Positions 4,988 to 63,429 of a DNA stretch of 64,000 nucleotides are shown piece after piece. The stretch lies in contig JAEPPZ010000004.1 in assembly GCA_017640785.1 (NCBI GenBank), positions 130,314 to 194,313 of the forward strand, written 5' to 3'. The notes below the pieces were generated by a model. That model was not told the DNA's origin, did no database searches, and saw nothing but the letters and a program-made list of their open reading frames with translations. A program made the position numbers and the translations under genes. Positions within the stretch are counted from its first letter, which is position 1. Each line of letters begins with the position of its first letter. This stretch comes from Balneola sp. Lineage in GTDB: Bacteria; Bacteroidota; Rhodothermia; Balneolales; Balneolaceae.

Positions 4988-6317
4988 CAATGAGCTCCGC
5001 AATGGCTTGTTCTTCTTGCTGAACGGATTCAGAAAGCGTTCCTAAAAAATGTCCTTCACTGGTGATGGAAGTCAATTCAATATCCTGAATGGTATTTATC
5101 AATCGCTCATTAAACGGGATAGCTACACGAACGTAATTGTTGGTCCAACCAAACATGAGTCCGTCTTTATCTGATTCTTCAAACAGGGCAGGACGTACTT
5201 CGCCTTCAAATCGGGAATCAAAATCAAAACGCTTCTTCTTTGAAAGTCGTCTGAGTTTATGCGTTCGTTTTTTACGCTCTTGCTTTGGAATCACTGGTTT
5301 CAAAGAAAGCGCATGCGTATTTGGTCGCTCGGAATAAGTAAACACATGCAGATATGAAACATCCAGTGAATTAATGAAATCAAACGACTCCTGAAACAAT
5401 TCGTCCGTTTCGCCCGGGTGACCGGTAATTACATCCACGCCAATACAAGCATCGGGAATCAATTCTCTGATGAGTTCCACTCTGCTGCGGTACAGATCAG
5501 ATTTATAACGCCTTCTCATGATCTTGAGCATTTCATCAGAACCGCTTTGAAGCGGAATATGGAAATGCGGTTGTAATTTCTTTGAAGTAGCAGCAAATCG
5601 GATGATCTCTTCGGTCAATAAATTCGGCTCGATAGAAGAAACGCGCAATCTTTCCAATCCTTTAACTTCGTCCAGCGCTTGCAAAAGCATGTAGAAGTTT
5701 TCATCGGTTCCGTAACCAAAATCTCCCGAATTAACACCGGTAACAATAATTTCTTTGAAACCTTCGGATACCAACTGTTCAGCATTGCGAACTACCGTAG
5801 CGATCTTAGGACTTCTACTCGCACCTCGAGCCAGCGGAATGGTACAGAATGAACATTTATAATTACAACCATCCTGAACCTTTAGAAAAGCACGGGTTCG
5901 GTCATCAGAAGAAAAGGCATTGTGAAAATCCACAGCTTCATTAACATCGGTGTTATGAATGATGGTCTTTTCCTGCTTCACGAAATCATCAAACAGATCC
6001 AGCAGATGGAATTTATCCTTGGCACCAAGTACTACATCCACGCCTTCGATCTGAGCAATTTCTTCGGGCTCCAACTGAGCATAACAACCCACTACAGCCA
6101 CAAAAGCATCGGGGTTTCTTCGGAGAGCTTGTCGGACGGTTTTTCTGCAAGCAGAATTGGCATCCAGAGTCACGGAGCAGGTATTTATAACATACACATC
6201 GGCTTTATCATCGAACTCTTTGAGCTCAAATCCTTCGTCCTCGAAGTCTCTTCGCATGGAAGACGTTTCCGAGAAATTTAACTTACAACCTAATGTTTCA
6301 AATGCGGCACTTTTCAT
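4980..6317 (-). CDS. mtaB: tRNA t6A37 methylthiotransferase MtaB
   Basis: 445 residues with the methylthiotransferase layout. An N-terminal MTTase domain has cluster cysteines C11, C47 and C78. A radical-SAM domain carries CNYKCSFC (C151, C155, C158). A C-terminal TRAM-like region follows. The ETLGCKLNFSE start and the DGCNYKCSFCTIP block match the MtaB branch rather than MiaB or RimO. It converts t6A37 to ms2t6A37 in tRNAs reading ANN codons, using SAM and two Fe-S clusters. It probably shares a transcript with the downstream glycosylase, which overlaps its end by a few bases. Confidence 0.92.
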   Translation of the reverse strand: MKSAAFETLGCKLNFSETSSMRRDFEDEGFELKEFDDKADVYVINTCSVTLDANSACRKTVRQALRRNPDAFVAVVGCYAQLEPEEIAQIEGVDVVLGAKDKFHLLDLFDDFVKQEKTIIHNTDVNEAVDFHNAFSSDDRTRAFLKVQDGCNYKCSFCTIPLARGASRSPKIATVVRNAEQLVSEGFKEIIVTGVNSGDFGYGTDENFYMLLQALDEVKGLERLRVSSIEPNLLTEEIIRFAATSKKLQPHFHIPLQSGSDEMLKIMRRRYKSDLYRSRVELIRELIPDACIGVDVITGHPGETDELFQESFDFINSLDVSYLHVFTYSERPNTHALSLKPVIPKQERKKRTHKLRRLSKKKRFDFDSRFEGEVRPALFEESDKDGLMFGWTNNYVRVAIPFNERLINTIQDIELTSITSEGHFLGTLSESVQQEEQAIAELIDG

Positions 6318-7342: not shown

Positions 7343-7384
7343 GGATGTTGTGCAGTTTATAAGCTCAGAAACTGCACAACATCC
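7343..7384. repeat. 16-bp perfect inverted repeat with 10-base loop
   Basis: GGATGTTGTGCAGTTT (7343-7358) is exactly inverted at 7369-7384 around ATAAGCTCAG. It is immediately preceded by a second perfect hairpin (GTCCGCC/GGCGGAC, 7322-7339). No poly-T follows. It resembles a miniature palindromic element rather than a terminator. Confidence 0.7.
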
Positions 7385-7465
7385 CTCTGATCTCACACAA
7401 GTGTTCGATCGGTCTCCCTTCAAAGGGAGATTTGTTTCTTTTATGTTATTTAGAGCGGATGTGAG

Positions 7466-43713: not shown

Positions 43714-45816
43714 ATGACTAATAAAACTTCACATAACTTATTTTTGACCGTTAAAGAATTACGGTACAGAATTTCGCTTTCAGAGAGAGGGATTAGAAAG
43801 CTTGTTGATCGCGGAAATATCGGCGAAGACAATTTTGATTATAAAAAAGAGAAAAGCGCAGGCCGGCCGGAGTTGGTTATAAACCCGATGGCTTTACCGG
43901 AGAAATATAAGAACGAGTATCTGCGTAGTATTGAGAATGAACAGATCAACGAAACTGCAGGTACGCTACCGGATTGGGCGGAAGAAAAAGCTACTGCCAG
44001 GATAGCTGTTGTTCGATTGCTTAAGCAGGAGAAAGCGCAGTTTAAAAAAGAAGGCAAAACCATTGGAATGGTATATGATGAAGTTGCTGAGATCTACAAT
44101 ACCGGCCACATCCTGGAGAAGGCTTTTTCCATACTTGGTGATATCAGCGGTTACACTGTAAAGAATTGGGAAAAGCTGTACGACGATTGCCGCGCTACCG
44201 GTGGAAACATTCTGGAAGCAATGGCACCTAATTACGGCCATCGTAAAGGTGATTCTAAAATGAATCAAAATGAATGGTACAAGGACCTAATCTTAAAGCA
44301 ACTTCTTACACCAAACCGTTTAAATGTTACCCGCGCTGCCAAGATCGTGAACGCTGAGCTTAGGCTTCATAAAAAAGAAATTCCCTGCAGTATTAAAACC
44401 GTGCAGCGCTTTGTTAAGAAGTGGAAGAAAAACAATTACGATACATGGGTGTTGATGCGCGAAGGCCAGAAGGCGCTGAACGACAAAGTAATGCCTTACA
44501 TAGATCGAGACTGGAACCTGCTTAATGTTGGTGATGTGCTTATTGCCGATGGCCATGTACTTAATTTTGACGTGAAACATCCTGTTACCGGTAAAGCTCA
44601 CCGACCTACAATGATCTGCTTTTTAGATGGTAGATCTCGCTATCCGGTTGGTATCTCGATCATGCCGACGGAGAACACAGATAACATAAATGAGGCTTTA
44701 CTGGATGCGATCAATACACTTGGAAAGTTCCCACAGGCAGTGATCCTGGATAACGGCCGAGCATTTAAAGCAAAGCATTTTACTAAGTCACCTGATTTTT
44801 ATGATGCCGGTATTGCAGGGATCTATGAGAAGTACGGAATTCTTACCCATTTCACATTGCCATATCACGGACAAAGTAAGCCTGTAGAACCATTCTTTAA
44901 TCAATTTAATGAGCGCTTTAGTAAGCAGATGGCGACGTATCGCGGAGCTTCTATTGATACTAAAGTTCCACGGTTGATGCGTAACGAGAAGTTCCATCAA
45001 AAACTATACGGCGATGTAGTTGGCGACTGGTTGCCGACTATTTCGGAAGCTACAGATCTTATAAAAATTTGGGCGGAGAAAGCTTACGGACAAGAAGAGC
45101 ATTCAGGTTTAAAGAAGGGCGAAACTCCATTAAAAGTTCTATTAAACGGCAGGGGCGAAGGTGTTAAAGAGTCGCTACTAATTGACCTGATGCTTAAGAG
45201 TAAAGCTGTAACTCCACGCCGGGCACGATTTATAATTGAAGGCATTGTTTACAGTAATGAAGATGTACTAACAGGTGTTAATAAAGAATTATTAGTTAGG
45301 TATTCAAGAAATATACCACAAAAAGTATGGGTGTTTGATACAGATTCATCAAAAGGTAATGAGTTGATATGTATTGCTGAGGCAACACAAGCAGTTCATC
45401 CTTTAGAAAAGCTTACTGAAGCAAACGGTGAGTTTAATATGGGTATCCGCGACAGACTGGACCAGAGAAAACGACTTGAAAAACGTGCTCAAAAGTCCGC
45501 AAAAGCGTTGCTTGAAATGGACGGTACTACTCACGCCGGACATGGTATTCCTGAACATTTAAAAAATATTCCGGATGCGACTCCAAATCTACGCATCGAG
45601 GCGATTGAGTCGAAAGAAATTGAAGAAGAAAAAACAGATACACCTACCATTTTTGAACATGCTTACGAGCGGTTTGAGTACATCGCAGCACAAAAGAAAT
45701 TCGCGGATCTGAGCGAAGCTGATATTGATTTTCTAAGAGATTTTAAAACAACCGGAACGTACAGCAATCTATACAAAGAGCGCTATGCAGACCAAGTAAA
45801 TTCTATAATTAACTAA
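43714..45816 (+). CDS. MuA-type DDE transposase
   Basis: 700 residues with the MuA order. An N-terminal DNA-binding Mu HTH (about 8-70: TVKELRYRISLSERGIRKLV) and winged-helix repeats precede an rve/RNase H-fold core with the catalytic triad D279 (IADGH), D346 (ILDNGRA) and E392 (KPVEPFF). A Mu-transpos C beta-barrel and a C-terminal charged tail that should contact MuB follow. It cuts and joins the phage ends for integration and replicative transposition. All three acidic residues are present, so the enzyme is probably functional. It is followed by the MuB-like gene after 8 bp. Confidence 0.95.
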   Translation: MTNKTSHNLFLTVKELRYRISLSERGIRKLVDRGNIGEDNFDYKKEKSAGRPELVINPMALPEKYKNEYLRSIENEQINETAGTLPDWAEEKATARIAVVRLLKQEKAQFKKEGKTIGMVYDEVAEIYNTGHILEKAFSILGDISGYTVKNWEKLYDDCRATGGNILEAMAPNYGHRKGDSKMNQNEWYKDLILKQLLTPNRLNVTRAAKIVNAELRLHKKEIPCSIKTVQRFVKKWKKNNYDTWVLMREGQKALNDKVMPYIDRDWNLLNVGDVLIADGHVLNFDVKHPVTGKAHRPTMICFLDGRSRYPVGISIMPTENTDNINEALLDAINTLGKFPQAVILDNGRAFKAKHFTKSPDFYDAGIAGIYEKYGILTHFTLPYHGQSKPVEPFFNQFNERFSKQMATYRGASIDTKVPRLMRNEKFHQKLYGDVVGDWLPTISEATDLIKIWAEKAYGQEEHSGLKKGETPLKVLLNGRGEGVKESLLIDLMLKSKAVTPRRARFIIEGIVYSNEDVLTGVNKELLVRYSRNIPQKVWVFDTDSSKGNELICIAEATQAVHPLEKLTEANGEFNMGIRDRLDQRKRLEKRAQKSAKALLEMDGTTHAGHGIPEHLKNIPDATPNLRIEAIESKEIEEEKTDTPTIFEHAYERFEYIAAQKKFADLSEADIDFLRDFKTTGTYSNLYKERYADQVNSIIN

Positions 45817-45824
45817 GAGACAGC

Positions 45825-46505
45825 ATGAAAAATAAATTCGTTAATACCAGGAATGTAAAGTCAATGTTTGCACTGGCTGATCTACTGGAAAGTTCAGAAG
45901 AAAAAACGCCCGGATTAGGATTGTATTACGGCGATCCCGGACTCGGAAAAACAGAAGCAGCGCAACATCTTTGCATTAAAAAGCCGAACTACATTTATAT
46001 ACGAGCAAAGACAGCCTGGACCATTCGATGGATGCTTAATGATTTGCTATTAGAACTGAACGAGCAAGCTGCGGGGCGAACTGAACGAGCTTATGAAAGG
46101 CTTAGAGATACTTTGCTTAAAGATCGCCGCCCTATTGTTATTGATGAAGTGGATCACATGCTGCACGACAGTAAGGTTATTGAGACGATGCGAGATATTT
46201 ACGATGAAACCGGCAATCCGTTTTTGTTGATCGGTATGCAGGATGCCGAGCGTAAGTTGAAGCGTTTTCCTCACTTGTATAGTCGCTTCGCTGATGTATA
46301 TAAAGCAAAGCCTATATCAGCAGATGAAATTCAGGATATCGCTGATCAATTATGTGATTACCCGTTGGAGCAGCAATCCGCACAGCTACTTTTTGAGCGT
46401 ACGAACGGAGAGTTCAGAAAGATAATGCGATGGCTAAAAGTGCTTGAAAGAAAAGCCCACACTAACAGCTTGAAAGCTATAACACCGGCTTTAATTAAAG
46501 GATAA
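45825..46505 (+). CDS. MuB-type AAA+ target-capture ATPase
   Basis: 226 residues. Walker A GDPGLGKT (36-43), Walker B IVIDEVDH (104-111), a sensor region GNPFLLIGMQ and an arginine-containing SRF motif; AAA_22/ExeA-like. It lacks the N-terminal HTH seen in Mu B, beginning directly with the ATPase domain, like shorter MuB relatives. It binds target DNA with ATP and stimulates MuA. A target-immunity role is inferred from the family. Confidence 0.9.
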   Translation: MKNKFVNTRNVKSMFALADLLESSEEKTPGLGLYYGDPGLGKTEAAQHLCIKKPNYIYIRAKTAWTIRWMLNDLLLELNEQAAGRTERAYERLRDTLLKDRRPIVIDEVDHMLHDSKVIETMRDIYDETGNPFLLIGMQDAERKLKRFPHLYSRFADVYKAKPISADEIQDIADQLCDYPLEQQSAQLLFERTNGEFRKIMRWLKVLERKAHTNSLKAITPALIKG

Positions 46506-54681: not shown

Positions 54682-54714
54682 CCCGGGTGTGTAGAAGCAT
54701 CCGGGTTATTTTTT
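54682..54714 (+). terminator. Rho-independent terminator
   Basis: CCCGGGTG (54682-54689) pairs with CATCCGGG (54698-54705) with one G-T pair around TGTAGAAG, followed by TTATTTTTT. It closes the 53921-54675 transcript; the A-run on the other side allows use by the converging gene ending at 54706. Confidence 0.9.
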
Positions 54715-55251
54715 ACCATGACAGTGTTTGTATTTCTTTCCGGAACCACAAGGGCATGGAGCATTTCGACCCGGCTCTTCATCCTTCTTAAAAGGCGTTT
54801 TCTTTGGTTGCACATTGTAGTCAATCTCTTCAATAGATGGTATTCTAAACGAAAAAGTAGTTTTACCACCTACGTTAGTGATCGAGAAGTCACCTTTATT
54901 AATTACATTCATTCCAATCAATACATCAAACCCATTTAAATCACCTTCAGTAACTTTAACAAGCTTAAAACCAACATTGTTTGGAAGCACTAGGTTAATT
55001 AAGTAAACATTTTTTACGCTATTACCGTCTGCGTGGTATACTTTATTCTTTCCAACGGGTTTAAGATTAAGCTCTTCAGCTACTTTTTTACTGATAACAG
55101 TACCTGATGCACCTGTATCCCACAGACCTGTATATTCTTTAAAAACCGGATGCTCTTTACCGGAGTTAGGATCATGCGCTTTGCAAACACCAAGCTTTGT
55201 AATGAGCTTGTTAAGTATACCGTTTCCTTTAAGCGTAAATGAATTAACCAA
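54706..55251 (-). CDS. Retropepsin-like aspartic protease with C-terminal SEC-C motif
   Basis: 181 residues. A retropepsin half-fold has LWDTGASGTVIS (catalytic D45-T46-G47) and the hydrophobic GFDVLIGMNVI (about 108-117). After a linker comes a SEC-C zinc motif, GRNAPCPCGSGKKYKHCHG (161-179, with C166, C168, C177 and H178). Retropepsins act as dimers. SEC-C binds zinc and contacts ribosome or protein partners in SecA and stress proteins. The fusion suggests regulated cleavage of a target chosen by SEC-C. It is downstream of a DUF5678-like gene (8-bp gap) on the minus strand, against the phage late genes, so it is probably cargo. Confidence 0.82.
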   Translation of the reverse strand: MVNSFTLKGNGILNKLITKLGVCKAHDPNSGKEHPVFKEYTGLWDTGASGTVISKKVAEELNLKPVGKNKVYHADGNSVKNVYLINLVLPNNVGFKLVKVTEGDLNGFDVLIGMNVINKGDFSITNVGGKTTFSFRIPSIEEIDYNVQPKKTPFKKDEEPGRNAPCPCGSGKKYKHCHGKK

Positions 55252-56213: not shown

Positions 56214-56276
56214 GGAATTAAGAATTAAAAATTAAGGATTAAGAATGAGCTAACAGCTGTTAGCTGTTAGCTATTA
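56214..56276. repeat. Heptad junction repeat: (AATTAAG)n then (AGCTGTT)n
   Basis: Four AATTAAG-like units followed by AGCTAACAGCTGTTAGCTGTTAGC-type units, the same order and strand as 47049-47106 although the flanking genes run leftward. Its end (TTA at 56274) supplies the portal gene's TAA stop on the minus strand. Confidence 0.8.
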
Positions 56277-57536
56277 TCCTAAAGGTTCTTGTTCGCCGAG
56301 GGTTTCTTCGCCTTCTTCGGGTTCGGGGATCTCGAATTTCTCGTTGATGAATTTAGCCGGGATGCGTTTTCCTGCTCCTGCGTTTTTTAGATTGCCTATA
56401 ACGACAGATAGTTTTACTAAATCTTCTTTTTCTTTGTAGTCGTTTTCTACATACAGCGGGCATTCTTCCGTCCGGCTTATGTTCATCCACCACCATTTAT
56501 TGAGCAGATCCTGCAGGCAGTTTTCATTATGCTCGAGATCATCTTCAAAGTAATCGGATCTTACTTCATCCTGGCTATCGGCTTGTGCTCTGGTTCCGTA
56601 CTTTTCTGCAGTAGTAGCAAGCGTAGTTCCGTTGTACAGCTTAGTAATGTAGCCGTCCAGTCTGTGGATCAGATTTTCAGCCATATCAGCTGAAGCGCTC
56701 ATTCCTTTAAATTCCTGCAGCTCAATCATCATATCTTCCGGGAACACTGCTCCGAGATCTTCGCCCAGATCAAAGATCGCACTTTTTAGCACATCAACAT
56801 CGGCTTTTGGTGCGCCTTGCGGATATTTACCAATTCTTTGAGGTTTACCATACTTACCGGAGAGCTTTACTGTATTCCAGATCACGTAGAATTGCATTGC
56901 TGTGATCATAGCAGCGTACTTAAACAGCCCGCCGTAATAATCTCTATCGCGTTCCGGTTCTTCCATAAAGAATGTTGGAGCGTACAAGTGTAACAGCTGC
57001 TCTTCGCTTAGCGGATTGGCTCTGGTGCTCATTCCCGGGATATCACTCCAATGAAGCTCACCATCAACCCAAAAGAACTGATCTTTACGGAGCGGTTTAA
57101 AACCTGAAATAGTAGTTCGGCTGCCTTTGGTATTCCAAATGATCTCAGCGGGTTTAATACCCATTAAGATCGCTTCCTGGTTTAACTTCTTAGCTTTCTT
57201 AAACACCTTGTTAAGATCTTCAGTAGCCTGCTCAATTACCTTTTCATTTTTCCCGTCTCTGCTTTTGATCAGGAAGGTAATTTTAGAAACAGAGTTCTTT
57301 CTGGTAGTGAACTCAGTAATATTAAGCGGGTTCGCCAAGTTGATGCGATCTTTCAGATCATAAAACCGCTGAGGATCTGCAGAAATTCCTTTTAAAGCGT
57401 TCCGTACTTCAATCACGGTTGGTGCAATGTTTGCGTAACCCATATCAATAGAAGTACCCGGAAGTAAACCACGGTATGCTTTTGCCGGTTTAAAAAGCTC
57501 GCTATCGTGTGCGTAAATATCGTTTAGTGTAGGCAT
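56274..57536 (-). CDS. Portal protein, DUF935 (Mu gp29-like)
   Basis: 420 residues. DUF935 features: KYGKPQRIGKYPQGAP with the downstream DLGEDLGAVFPEDM segment, and LYNGTTLATTAEKYGTRAQADSQ followed by a helix with the LLNKWWWMN block. The N-terminal RNSVSKITFLIKSRDG and GIKPAEIIWNTKG strands fit the gp29 wing. The acidic C-terminus (EEGEETLGEQ) is typical. Portal dodecamers form the DNA gate of the head. It lies directly downstream of the terminase (4-bp gap). Confidence 0.9.
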   Translation of the reverse strand: MPTLNDIYAHDSELFKPAKAYRGLLPGTSIDMGYANIAPTVIEVRNALKGISADPQRFYDLKDRINLANPLNITEFTTRKNSVSKITFLIKSRDGKNEKVIEQATEDLNKVFKKAKKLNQEAILMGIKPAEIIWNTKGSRTTISGFKPLRKDQFFWVDGELHWSDIPGMSTRANPLSEEQLLHLYAPTFFMEEPERDRDYYGGLFKYAAMITAMQFYVIWNTVKLSGKYGKPQRIGKYPQGAPKADVDVLKSAIFDLGEDLGAVFPEDMMIELQEFKGMSASADMAENLIHRLDGYITKLYNGTTLATTAEKYGTRAQADSQDEVRSDYFEDDLEHNENCLQDLLNKWWWMNISRTEECPLYVENDYKEKEDLVKLSVVIGNLKNAGAGKRIPAKFINEKFEIPEPEEGEETLGEQEPLG

Positions 57537-61328: not shown

Positions 61329-62255
61329 ATGTTACTATCACAAATCTCATCCCTGGATGCAAATGGAGCTGCGGTACTACGAGATATTTTAAATATTTCA
61401 CAGTTTGCACGTTTAGCTGAATTCCGTGAAGACGGTACAGATTACGTTAAAACAGAACTTAAAGAACGTAGCGCTCCCGGCTTTAGAGCAAAGAACGGTT
61501 CTTATACACCGGAAAACGATAACCCAACTCCAGAACTTGAAGGATTGAAGTTTCTTGGTAAGGAAGCAATTCTTGATCAGTCTTACAAGATTGATGCAGA
61601 AAAGGGTTTGCTAAACCTTGACGTTTATAAGCAACGTTTGTTAAAAAGACGAGCTTTCGCATTGGGTCGCGGGCTTGATGTTCAAACATTCGCCGGTGGC
61701 GGTACCGGTAATGACATCCTTGGGTTTGCAGGGATTTTAGACGGCACGAACGTCGGAAACTTCGGTGATACGATGGTTCTTAATGGTTTAGATCTTGATC
61801 TAACTGCAGAGGCAAACTGGAATTCTTTCATGGAACTTCTTGATGAAGCGATTGAAGATGTACCTCAAGCGAATATTATCGCTGTAAATGGTAAGCTTAA
61901 GGCAAAGATTAACTCAATGGGTAGAAAATTTCATTCAGTAGCCGAAACTAAAGACGCTTTCGGTGAGCATGTAATGACGTATAACGGTATTCCTATTGTG
62001 CGCTTAAACGATGGTGCTATCCCTAATGATGAGCGTAACAACGCTGACACCGCAGATACAACTACAAGTTTGTATGTAATGCGAATGGAAGAGATAGACG
62101 GTGTTTGCTTAAGCTCAAACTCCGGATTGCGATACACTCCATTCCCTGAACTGGAAGCTTCTGTTACAGAAAAAGCTAGAATGGAAATTTACTACAACAT
62201 TACAATTGAAGCTCCGGACGCGATCCGTAGAGTCGAGCACTTGAAAATAGTGTAA
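61329..62255 (+). CDS. Major capsid protein
   Basis: 308 residues. Sequence features fit an HK97-fold capsid: an N-terminal arm (ILNISQFARLAEF), E-loop-like ERSAPGFRAKNGSY and the YKIDAEKGLL segment, the TGNDILGFAGILDGTNV stretch corresponding to the common GTGN--P-GI motif, and a C-terminal part ending EAPDAIRRVEHLKI. It follows the scaffold-like gene. A UUCG-capped hairpin and an initiator-type tRNA come directly after. It is the most strongly expressed structural gene in comparable phages. Confidence 0.85.
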   Translation: MLLSQISSLDANGAAVLRDILNISQFARLAEFREDGTDYVKTELKERSAPGFRAKNGSYTPENDNPTPELEGLKFLGKEAILDQSYKIDAEKGLLNLDVYKQRLLKRRAFALGRGLDVQTFAGGGTGNDILGFAGILDGTNVGNFGDTMVLNGLDLDLTAEANWNSFMELLDEAIEDVPQANIIAVNGKLKAKINSMGRKFHSVAETKDAFGEHVMTYNGIPIVRLNDGAIPNDERNNADTADTTTSLYVMRMEEIDGVCLSSNSGLRYTPFPELEASVTEKARMEIYYNITIEAPDAIRRVEHLKIV

Positions 62256-62279: not shown

Positions 62280-62304
62280 CCCGGTCCGTCTTCGGGCGGC
62301 CGGG
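62280..62304 (+). promoter_or_regulatory. UUCG-tetraloop hairpin between capsid gene and tRNA
   Basis: CCCGG, a bulged T, CCGTC, loop TTCG, GGCGG, CCGGG: a ten-pair stem with a C(UUCG)G cap. No T-run follows, so it is not a standard terminator. It could protect the capsid mRNA 3' end or guide processing of the tRNA 5' end, which begins eight bases on. Confidence 0.7.
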
Positions 62305-62311
62305 TTCATAC

Positions 62312-62383
62312 AGCGAAGTAGAGCAGTGGTAGCTCGCTGGGCTCATATCCCGGAGGTCGCAGGTTCGAATCCTGCCTTCGCCA
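62312..62383 (+). tRNA. Initiator-type tRNA-fMet (anticodon CAT) encoded by the prophage
   Basis: 72 nt with full cloverleaf. Acceptor G2-G7 pairs with C66-C71, but position 1-72 is A.C, unpaired, as initiators require (usually C.A). The D stem is GAGC/GCTC with the A11-T24 pair of bacterial initiators. The anticodon stem ends in three G-C pairs (GGG/CCC), and the loop CTCATAT has CAT at 62344-62346. The variable loop AGGTC and the T arm GCAGG-TTCGAAT-CCTGC are standard. CCA is not encoded. It lies between capsid and HeH genes on the same strand. Confidence 0.9.
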
Positions 62384-62419
62384 CAAGTTTTAATCAATAA
62401 TAACCAACCGGAGATCACC

Positions 62420-62998
62420 GTGAAAAACTTAACACTCACCTTTTTTATAGCACTCTTTTTGTGCTTCATCGCATCGCCTGCAGTACCTGCAGCTGAAGTA
62501 AACGAATTTGAAATCGTAGTAGCCGATGGCTTTATCGGTTTTGAACAAGCCTATCAAGTTGATGAGCTTGCTAAATCGTCAAATAAATCAAAAAACGTTA
62601 TGTCACAGTCAAAAACTTTAACAGCAGCTGTTGCAAAGATAAAGCAGGATAAGTTGGATCAGCGCAGAACAGTGCTAAGTAAGATCGACCAGGAATTTGT
62701 AGACGAAACGGTAAAGCTCGGTATAGAATCCGGAGTAGCTGTTGATAAGTCTATTGTAAAAGCTGCTTCAGAGGAAGTGCAGAAAGCTTACCAAAAAGCC
62801 TCAAAGAAACTGAAGGCCGCCCCGGAACCGGAAGCGGATTCTGATGGTGGCGGTGAAGCGGATGAAACGGACCCCGGTATTCCTACAAAGGCAAATACTA
62901 AAGCTGAAATTCAAAGCTGGTTAACGGAGCATAAAGTCGAGTTTGAAACCGACGCAAATAAGGACGCTCTCCTTGCCCTGGTAGCGAAAAGCCAGTAG
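62420..62998 (+). CDS. Exported-looking protein with C-terminal HeH/LEM domain
   Basis: 192 residues from a GTG start with GGAG 7 bases upstream. The N-terminal signal peptide-like run (TFFIALFLCFIASPAVPA) is unexpected for a virion protein. The middle is Lys/Asp-rich and helical. The C-terminal ~35 residues (TKAEIQSWLTEHKVEFETDANKDALLALVA) are a HeH/LEM-type helix-extended-helix fold found in phage head or tail proteins that bind DNA. Position right after the capsid suggests a head decoration or head-tail protein. An internal Met at about residue 54 could be an alternative start. Confidence 0.6.
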   Translation: MKNLTLTFFIALFLCFIASPAVPAAEVNEFEIVVADGFIGFEQAYQVDELAKSSNKSKNVMSQSKTLTAAVAKIKQDKLDQRRTVLSKIDQEFVDETVKLGIESGVAVDKSIVKAASEEVQKAYQKASKKLKAAPEPEADSDGGGEADETDPGIPTKANTKAEIQSWLTEHKVEFETDANKDALLALVAKSQ

Positions 62999-63075
62999 TA
63001 AAGTTCTTTTAGTTAGTTATGTACAGGAGCTTTGATCGGCTGCTGTACTTTTTAAAACATTATACAACCTTAGCC

Positions 63076-63429
63076 ATGGACTACTTTCCACAATCTGATT
63101 TTACCACCGCTGTTCCTTCCTGCAGTAAAAAAGACATGAGTCCTGACTTGCTGGAAAGGCTGAATGTAGCCCGTTCTTTGGCAGGTGTACCATTCGTAAT
63201 TAATTCAGCATACAGATCATATCAGTGGGAAAAAGATAACGGCCGTGATGGATCGAGTTCTCACACGCTTGGCTTGGCAGTAGATATAAAAGCAACAAGC
63301 AGCCGAAACCGGTTTTTAATACTGGACGGATTGTTTAAGGCAGGATTTAAGAGAATCGGAATCCATAAGCATTTTATACATGCTGATATAGATCCGGATA
63401 AAGGTGAACAAGTAATCTGGATGTACTGA
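63076..63429 (+). CDS. M15-family D,D-peptidase endolysin
   Basis: About 117 residues from the Met at 63076 (MDYFPQSDF, the usual start of this family); an ATG 19 codons upstream is also in frame. Zn-binding and catalytic residues of M15A are present: NSAYRS, SSSHTLGLAVDIK (His and Asp ligands) and KHFIHADIDP (late His). It cleaves peptidoglycan stem peptides for host lysis. Adjacent small membrane proteins downstream are likely holin-like partners. Confidence 0.85.
   Translation: MDYFPQSDFTTAVPSCSKKDMSPDLLERLNVARSLAGVPFVINSAYRSYQWEKDNGRDGSSSHTLGLAVDIKATSSRNRFLILDGLFKAGFKRIGIHKHFIHADIDPDKGEQVIWMY

What the first reader, a model, noticed from the sequence alone, without database searches (positions are those of the whole stretch)
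62312..62383. Prophage-encoded initiator tRNA (fMet) directly behind the major capsid gene
The tRNA has the three initiator hallmarks together: an unpaired 1-72 position (A.C), A11-T24 in the D stem, and three G-C pairs below the CAT anticodon loop. Most phage tRNAs are elongators matching codon use; an initiator tRNA inside a structural operon is rare. It might boost initiation on late mRNAs during capsid synthesis, replace host fMet tRNA that is cleaved by anti-phage nucleases, or alter start-codon choice. The A1.C72 mismatch, instead of the usual C1.A72, is itself unusual.
Basis: partly seen in the sequence, partly recalled or inferred. Interest (0 to 1): 0.78.

Follow-up and report, generated by a model that had tools for sequence, protein, structure and literature searches.

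The report
Prophage initiator tRNA with altered loop
A virus dormant in a bacterial chromosome carries its own copy of the tRNA that starts every protein, changed at the exact spot where some bacterial toxins cut that tRNA; the same change recurs in unrelated viruses and is almost never seen in bacterial chromosomes, which suggests (unproven) a way to keep protein synthesis starting when the host destroys its own starter tRNA.

Summary
Window 62312-62383(+) is an intact initiator-type tRNA (CAT anticodon, A1·C72, A11-T24, three G-C pairs) in the late operon of a Mu-like prophage, 56 nt behind the major capsid gene. It is not a captured host gene or attachment fragment: the host's only chromosomal initiator lies intact on another contig and matches at 61/73 positions, stem differences are mostly paired, and the prophage carries a MuA/MuB transposition system.

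Two corrections. A1·C72 is not the striking feature (host relatives have C·C; A·C is common in phage initiators). What stands out is U38 in the anticodon loop. Every other initiator matching the core pattern in 196 related genomes has A38. U38 occurs in 26 viral contigs (21 distinct tRNAs), but in 84,980 species genomes I found seven real cases: five beside phage or RNA-repair genes, one on a plasmid, one chromosomal. A38-C39 is the bond cut by initiator-specific VapC toxins. U38 initiators also recur among head and packaging genes of unrelated phages.

Best explanation: a functional back-up initiator made with late mRNA that resists VapC-type cleavage. The tRNA's identity is near certain; resistance is inferred (about 0.5). 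Phage initiators are already known; the recurrent A38U change was not found described in the papers searched.

The parts
62312..62383 (+). initiator-type tRNA (tRNA-fMet, CAT); no CCA encoded
   Evidence: ARAGORN, Rfam RF00005 66.4 bits, identity to host fMet 61/73
62348..62348 (+). position 38 of the tRNA: U (A in the host and in all other pattern-matching initiators of relatives); 5' side of the bond cut by initiator-specific VapC
   Evidence: cleavage site A38-C39 from PMC4105405
62280..62304 (+). G+C-rich hairpin between the capsid stop codon and the tRNA; no T-run, not called as a terminator; possible 3' end of the capsid mRNA after tRNA processing (inferred)
   Evidence: -18.6 kcal/mol, z -3.2; not in terminator scan
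61329..62255 (+). major capsid protein gene
   Evidence: PHROG 212 E 3e-18; homologous capsids in 12 phage records
60705..61325 (+). 206-aa gene just upstream of the capsid gene; first gene of the plus-strand late operon (scaffold-like by position, inferred)
   Evidence: ORF and position; no family match
62420..62998 (+). gene following the tRNA (GTG start, signal-peptide-like start)
   Evidence: ORF; weak PHROG 2101
63019..63429 (+). M15 peptidase / endolysin
   Evidence: PF08291 E 5e-9, PHROG 894 lysis E 3e-14
43714..45816 (+). MuA-type transposase of the prophage
   Evidence: PHROG 310 E 1e-87
45825..46505 (+). MuB/TniB-like AAA ATPase of the prophage
   Evidence: PHROG 296 E 6e-46, PF05621
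57541..59163 (-). terminase large subunit
   Evidence: PHROG 38 E 7e-45
56274..57536 (-). Mu-type portal protein
   Evidence: PF06074 E 5.5e-42

Best explanation
A Mu-like prophage carries a functional second initiator tRNA inside its late (head) operon. With no promoter of its own detected, it is probably cut by RNase P and tRNase Z out of the late transcript and completed by the host CCA enzyme, so it appears when capsid is made (inferred). It keeps the determinants for initiator function, and its anticodon loop carries U38 in place of the otherwise invariant A38, next to the A38-C39 bond cut by initiator-specific VapC toxins. Its most likely job is to keep initiation going when the host's single chromosomal tRNA-fMet is cleaved or depleted during infection. 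Shown: sequence, structure, context, U38, its repeated occurrence in phages and its near absence from chromosomes. Inferred: expression, charging and formylation, and resistance to cleavage.
For: Initiator hallmarks and formylation-type acceptor pairs are intact. Relative to host fMet the stems change mostly by paired substitutions (5-68 and 6-67 G-C to A-T; 27-43 T-A to C-G), so the gene is maintained. The host has one chromosomal initiator in the tRNA set found. All other matches to the initiator core in 196 relatives are A38; only this prophage copy is U38. In a phylum sample of 118 genomes only two matches are U38, this one and a prophage copy beside a portal gene in a genome with normal A38 copies. 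U38: 26 viral contigs, 21 distinct, against 9 hits in 84,980 genomes. Two of those 9 are spurious. The seven real ones: beside terminase/protease, beside terminase, beside portal, beside a RlaP+PNKP RNA-repair gene, a phage contig, a plasmid tRNA array, and one chromosomal. A38U is the commonest single loop change in viral initiators (21 distinct; next C32U 12) and arose repeatedly (21 changes for 23 sequences). VapC cuts tRNA-fMet at A38-C39 (PMC4105405); extra tRNA-fMet genes partly rescue a VapC that targets it (PMC8522696). The host has four PIN-domain proteins, at least one a clear VapC with a neighbouring antitoxin gene.
Against: Most viral initiators (estimated about 97%) keep A38. No host nuclease is shown to cut tRNA-fMet; the clearest host VapC resembles M. 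tuberculosis VapC11/15, not a known fMet cutter. Relaxed constraint on a spare gene copy could also allow U38. The only two identifiable relatives of this prophage (shared transposase in G054, distant capsid in G128) lack the tRNA. No expression data.
Confidence: 0.5

Rival explanations
1. Dosage: a functional extra initiator that raises the initiation capacity for abundant late mRNAs, with U38 selectively neutral.
For: One chromosomal initiator gene in the set found; late-operon position; most phage initiators keep A38; in 80 contigs with the related terminase the only tRNAs are three initiators, so initiation itself seems to be the target rather than codon supply.
Against: Does not explain why a residue invariant in chromosomes changes repeatedly, and mostly to U, in phages.
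Confidence: 0.27
2. Transcript punctuation: the tRNA and the hairpin before it are mainly a processing site that separates and stabilises the capsid mRNA; initiator identity is incidental.
For: Tight placement between two genes (56 and 36 nt) with a strong hairpin upstream (-18.6 kcal/mol) and no promoter or terminator found.
Against: All initiator-specific features are kept; other phages place initiator tRNAs among head genes, and the only tRNAs near 80 related terminases are initiators; any tRNA would serve for punctuation.
Confidence: 0.1
3. Non-functional passenger: a recently captured or decaying tRNA, or an attachment-site or lysogeny-complementing tRNA.
For: Two partial relatives of the prophage lack it; prophages often involve tRNA genes, and tRNA-dependent lysogeny exists (PMC10865867).
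Against: Full-length, high-scoring and with compensatory stem changes; the prophage is of the transposing Mu type; the host initiator is intact on another contig and differs at 12 of 73 positions.
Confidence: 0.06

Closest known systems
Bacterial initiator tRNA (tRNA-fMet), host copy L020
   Same: CAT anticodon, unpaired 1·72, A11-T24, three G-C pairs, formylation-type acceptor pairs, T arm
   Different: 61/73 identical; A1 instead of C1, U38 instead of A38, A9 instead of G9, D loop one base shorter, A-T pairs in the acceptor stem
Phage tRNAs with anticodon-loop changes proposed to escape tRNA-cutting defences (van den Berg et al. 2023, PMC10264068)
   Same: Phage-borne tRNA whose loop differs from the host's at a known nuclease site
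   Different: That work deals with tRNA-rich mycobacteriophages and enterobacterial phages and states that phages generally avoid encoding tRNA-fMet where VapC-LT2 targets it; here the initiator itself is encoded, with the change at the scissile bond
phiLM21-like Sinorhizobium prophages with a single tRNA-fMet (PMC12429752)
   Same: Temperate phage, solitary initiator tRNA; in phiLM21 the tRNA annotated tRNA-Met lies just before the terminase genes
   Different: Site-specific integration at host tRNA genes; phiLM21's tRNA has A38 and only two of the three G-C pairs (T29-A41)
tRNA-dependent lysogeny (PMC10865867)
   Same: Prophage carries a tRNA that duplicates a host function
   Different: There the phage disrupts the host tRNA gene of the same isotype by site-specific integration; here the host initiator is intact and the phage is of the transposing type

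Membership tests
Bacterial initiator tRNA (tRNA-fMet) | CAT anticodon in a complete tRNA fold | tested here: met
Bacterial initiator tRNA (tRNA-fMet) | no strong pair at 1·72 | tested here: met
   A1·C72
Bacterial initiator tRNA (tRNA-fMet) | A11-T24 in the D stem | tested here: met
   D stem GAGC/GCTC
Bacterial initiator tRNA (tRNA-fMet) | three consecutive G-C pairs 29-31/39-41 | tested here: met
   GGG/CCC
Bacterial initiator tRNA (tRNA-fMet) | acceptor pairs G2-C71, C3-G70, G4-C69 read by the formylase (general knowledge) | tested here: met
   AGCGAAG/CTTCGCC
Bacterial initiator tRNA (tRNA-fMet) | charged, formylated and used in initiation | not testable with these tools
   needs bench work
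Nuclease-evading phage tRNA (PMC10264068 hypothesis) | loop differs from the host tRNA at a known cleavage site | tested here: met
   A38U; VapC cuts A38-C39
Nuclease-evading phage tRNA (PMC10264068 hypothesis) | host encodes a nuclease that targets this tRNA | tested here: inconclusive
   four PIN-domain proteins, one clear VapC; targets unknown
Nuclease-evading phage tRNA (PMC10264068 hypothesis) | tRNA is insensitive to that nuclease | not testable with these tools
   needs cleavage assay
tRNA-dependent lysogeny | integration disrupts a host tRNA gene of the same isotype | tested here: not met
   host fMet intact on contig C10; prophage on C13
tRNA-dependent lysogeny | tyrosine integrase | tested here: not met
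   a MuA-type transposase and MuB partner were found instead; no integrase among the prophage genes scanned, though not every prophage gene was scanned
Captured attachment-site tRNA fragment | sequence identical to a chromosomal tRNA | tested here: not met
   61/73 identity to the closest host tRNA

The most novel reading that the evidence does not exclude
Phages have repeatedly evolved cleavage-proof initiator tRNAs: A38U at the bond cut by initiator-specific VapC toxins makes a resistant initiator, often made with the head and packaging genes, that defeats a defence based on stopping translation initiation.
Probability: 0.4. Interest if true: 0.78.

Novelty: new variant of a known kind. Interest (0 to 1): 0.6.

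Why it matters
Why phages carry tRNAs is a decades-old question (PMC10264068). Codon supply explains an initiator poorly, because an initiator does not read internal codons. A single, repeatedly gained base change exactly at the bond cut by initiator-specific toxins, almost absent from chromosomes, turns the question into one cleavage assay. It also qualifies the published statement that phages generally avoid encoding the VapC target tRNA-fMet.

Tried and rejected
Close relatives of the capsid in viral contigs: none. Conservation of the tRNA within the same phage lineage could not be tested: only a transposase relative (G054) and a distant capsid relative (G128) were found, both without a tRNA and, in G054, with different head genes. 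Host PIN proteins against solved structures gave no known initiator cutter. Elongator or Ile2 identity rejected. Attachment-site fragment and tRNA-dependent lysogeny rejected. A1·C72 as the key oddity rejected. Two genome hits for U38 rejected as coding DNA (L225) and degenerate tandem copies beside a normal gene (L224). The 72-base tRNA tree is weak, so 'repeated gain' rests on scattered nearest neighbours and 21 changes for 23 sequences, with no shuffle control run.

Full report
OBSERVATION. ARAGORN calls tRNA-Met(CAT) at 62312-62384 and it is the only tRNA in the window. Rfam's tRNA model matches 62312-62383 from end to end at 66.4 bits. By position: A1·C72; G2-C71, C3-G70, G4-C69, A5-T68, A6-T67, G7-C66; T8 A9; D stem G10-C25, A11-T24, G12-C23, C13-G22; anticodon stem C27-G43, T28·G42, G29-C41, G30-C40, G31-C39; loop CTCATAT; A73; no CCA encoded. 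The host's own tRNA-fMet does not encode CCA either.

IDENTITY. The genome has 34 tRNA matches. The loci scanned, which cover all of them, hold four CAT tRNAs: the prophage copy, L001, L002 and L020. L020 (C10:515859-515931, minus) is the host initiator. Against L020, stem positions change mostly in pairs (5-68 and 6-67 from G-C to A-T, 27-43 from T-A to C-G), the mark of a maintained tRNA rather than a decaying fragment.

CONTEXT. The prophage has a MuA-type transposase (43714-45816, PHROG 310) and MuB/TniB-like ATPase (45825-46505), a Mu-type portal (PF06074) and terminase on the minus strand, and the head operon on the plus strand from about 60705: a 206-aa gene, the major capsid gene (PHROG 212), the tRNA, a secreted-looking protein and an M15 endolysin. 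It continues to about window-equivalent 72220, where chromosomal genes resume (L036). The tRNA lies 56 nt after the capsid stop and 36 nt before the next start, on the same strand. No promoter-like or terminator-like site was found between on that strand, but there is a strong hairpin at 62280-62304 without a T-run (-18.6 kcal/mol, z -3.2). It is therefore probably processed from the late transcript (inferred).

WHAT IS UNUSUAL. Not A1·C72: all 30 related host initiators examined have C·C, and A·C is frequent in phage initiators (10 of 26 with U38, 7 of 120 with A38). The notable feature is U38 (window 62348). In 196 related genomes every other match to the initiator core pattern TAGCTCGNNGGGCTCATANCCC has A38. 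In a phylum sample of 118 genomes, 102 of which match, only two matches are U38: this prophage, and a copy 43 nt behind a portal gene in a genome that also has normal A38 copies.

CENSUS. The U38 form occurs in 26 viral contigs, 21 distinct tRNAs. The C/G38 scan gave 8 contigs, all C38. One complete subset (NN=CT) has 63 A38 contigs against 4 U38, and CT makes up 9 of the 120 A38 rows, so I estimate roughly 800 A38 contigs in all and U38 at about 3%. In 84,980 species genomes the U38 pattern occurs on only 9 contigs. Of these, L225 is coding DNA and L224 holds degenerate tandem copies beside a normal gene. The seven real ones are L228 (between terminase and head protease), L229 (before terminase), L232 (after portal), L231 (after a gene with RlaP and PNKP RNA-repair domains), L227 (a 37,757-base contig of the same length and tRNA as viral contig L055), L226 (tRNA array on plasmid pCPAA3) and L230 (chromosomal genes of a Subtercola MAG, the only chromosomal case). 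Most genomes carry a matching A38 gene (102 of 118 and 113 of 196 in the samples), so the enrichment in phages is of the order of a hundredfold or more. This is an estimate, not a complete count.

SELECTION OR DRIFT. Among distinct viral initiators with one loop change, A38U is commonest (21), then C32U 12, A37U 7, A38C 6, A37G 3, C32G 1, and none for A38G, A37C and C32A. Nearest neighbours of U38 tRNAs are mostly A38 tRNAs of varied origin, and a tree built with position 38 masked needs 21 changes for 23 U38 sequences. The change therefore looks repeatedly gained. Relaxed constraint on a spare gene is not excluded; a G at 38 could pair with C32 and may be barred for structural reasons.

PLACEMENT. 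U38 initiators lie among head or packaging genes in several unrelated phages: between portal and head protease (L072), one small gene behind a P22-type major capsid gene (L051/L054/L058/L064), near terminase (L066, L069), and in L228, L229 and L232 above. Among 80 viral contigs with a terminase related to this prophage's, ARAGORN finds only three tRNAs, all initiator-type; the one in L331 is U38 and sits in the packaging operon just before the terminase genes. Other U38 initiators lie beside replication genes or in tRNA arrays, so the head position is recurrent but not a rule. Annotated phages with A38 initiators beside terminase genes include phiLM21 and Elanor.

MECHANISM. VapC of Shigella flexneri and Salmonella cuts tRNA-fMet at the single bond A38-C39 (Winther and Gerdes 2011, as stated in PMC4105405). 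In E. coli, extra copies of the tRNA-fMet operon partly restored growth under a VapC that targets this tRNA (PMC8522696). The host here has one chromosomal initiator gene and four PIN-domain proteins, including one clear VapC with a neighbouring antitoxin gene (L043). Their targets are unknown; the nearest solved relatives of L043 are M. tuberculosis VapC11 and VapC15. The prophage tRNA could thus act as a cleavage-resistant back-up initiator when late proteins must be made. Expression, charging and resistance are inferred.

KNOWN WORK. Phage loop changes at nuclease sites were proposed as escape from tRNA-cutting defences in PMC10264068, which also reports that phages generally avoid encoding tRNA-fMet where VapC-LT2 targets it. 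Prophages with tRNA-fMet are published (PMC12429752). I found no description of a recurrent A38U change in phage initiators in the papers searched; the library is open-access only. The tRNA is therefore a new member of a known kind with a variant feature that deserves a direct test.

Noticed in passing
L231:4334-5710 and tRNA 6044-6116: In Actinomadura rubrisoli a U38 initiator tRNA follows a gene with RlaP and PNKP-phosphatase domains, both linked to RNA repair; this fits an arms race over tRNA cleavage.
   Followed up: partly
L331:7620-7694, L350:4446-4519, L400:6220-6292: Among 80 viral contigs with a related terminase the only three tRNAs found are all initiator-type, one of them U38.
   Followed up: partly
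L047:5001-5074: Bordetella phage PHB04 has a CAT tRNA with GGG/CCC but C11-G24 (a mixture of initiator and elongator features), in the same stretch as an RtcB RNA ligase gene.
   Followed up: no
L044:5985-6095 and L045:4025-4130: The initiator-like tRNAs of phages phiLM21 and Elanor have T29-A41, so only two of the three canonical G-C pairs.
   Followed up: no
L297:7966-8039: A genome of the same family (G058) has a second, divergent initiator tRNA (T1·C72, A38) besides the usual one; its neighbour gene has no family match.
   Followed up: partly
L224:814-1103: An Ignavibacteria MAG has two degenerate tandem copies of an initiator tRNA (5' part kept, 3' part altered) directly before a normal copy.
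   Followed up: no
window 7378-7433 (-): Rfam whalefall-1 RNA match, 42.5 bits, above the curated cut-off; outside the prophage.
   Followed up: no
window 54706-55251 (-): Prophage gene with a retropepsin-like DTGA motif and a C-terminal SEC-C-like cysteine motif (read by eye from the translation).
   Followed up: no
L040, L042, L043: Host VapBC-like pairs on contigs C10, C14 and C16; natural candidates for testing cleavage of the host initiator.
   Followed up: partly
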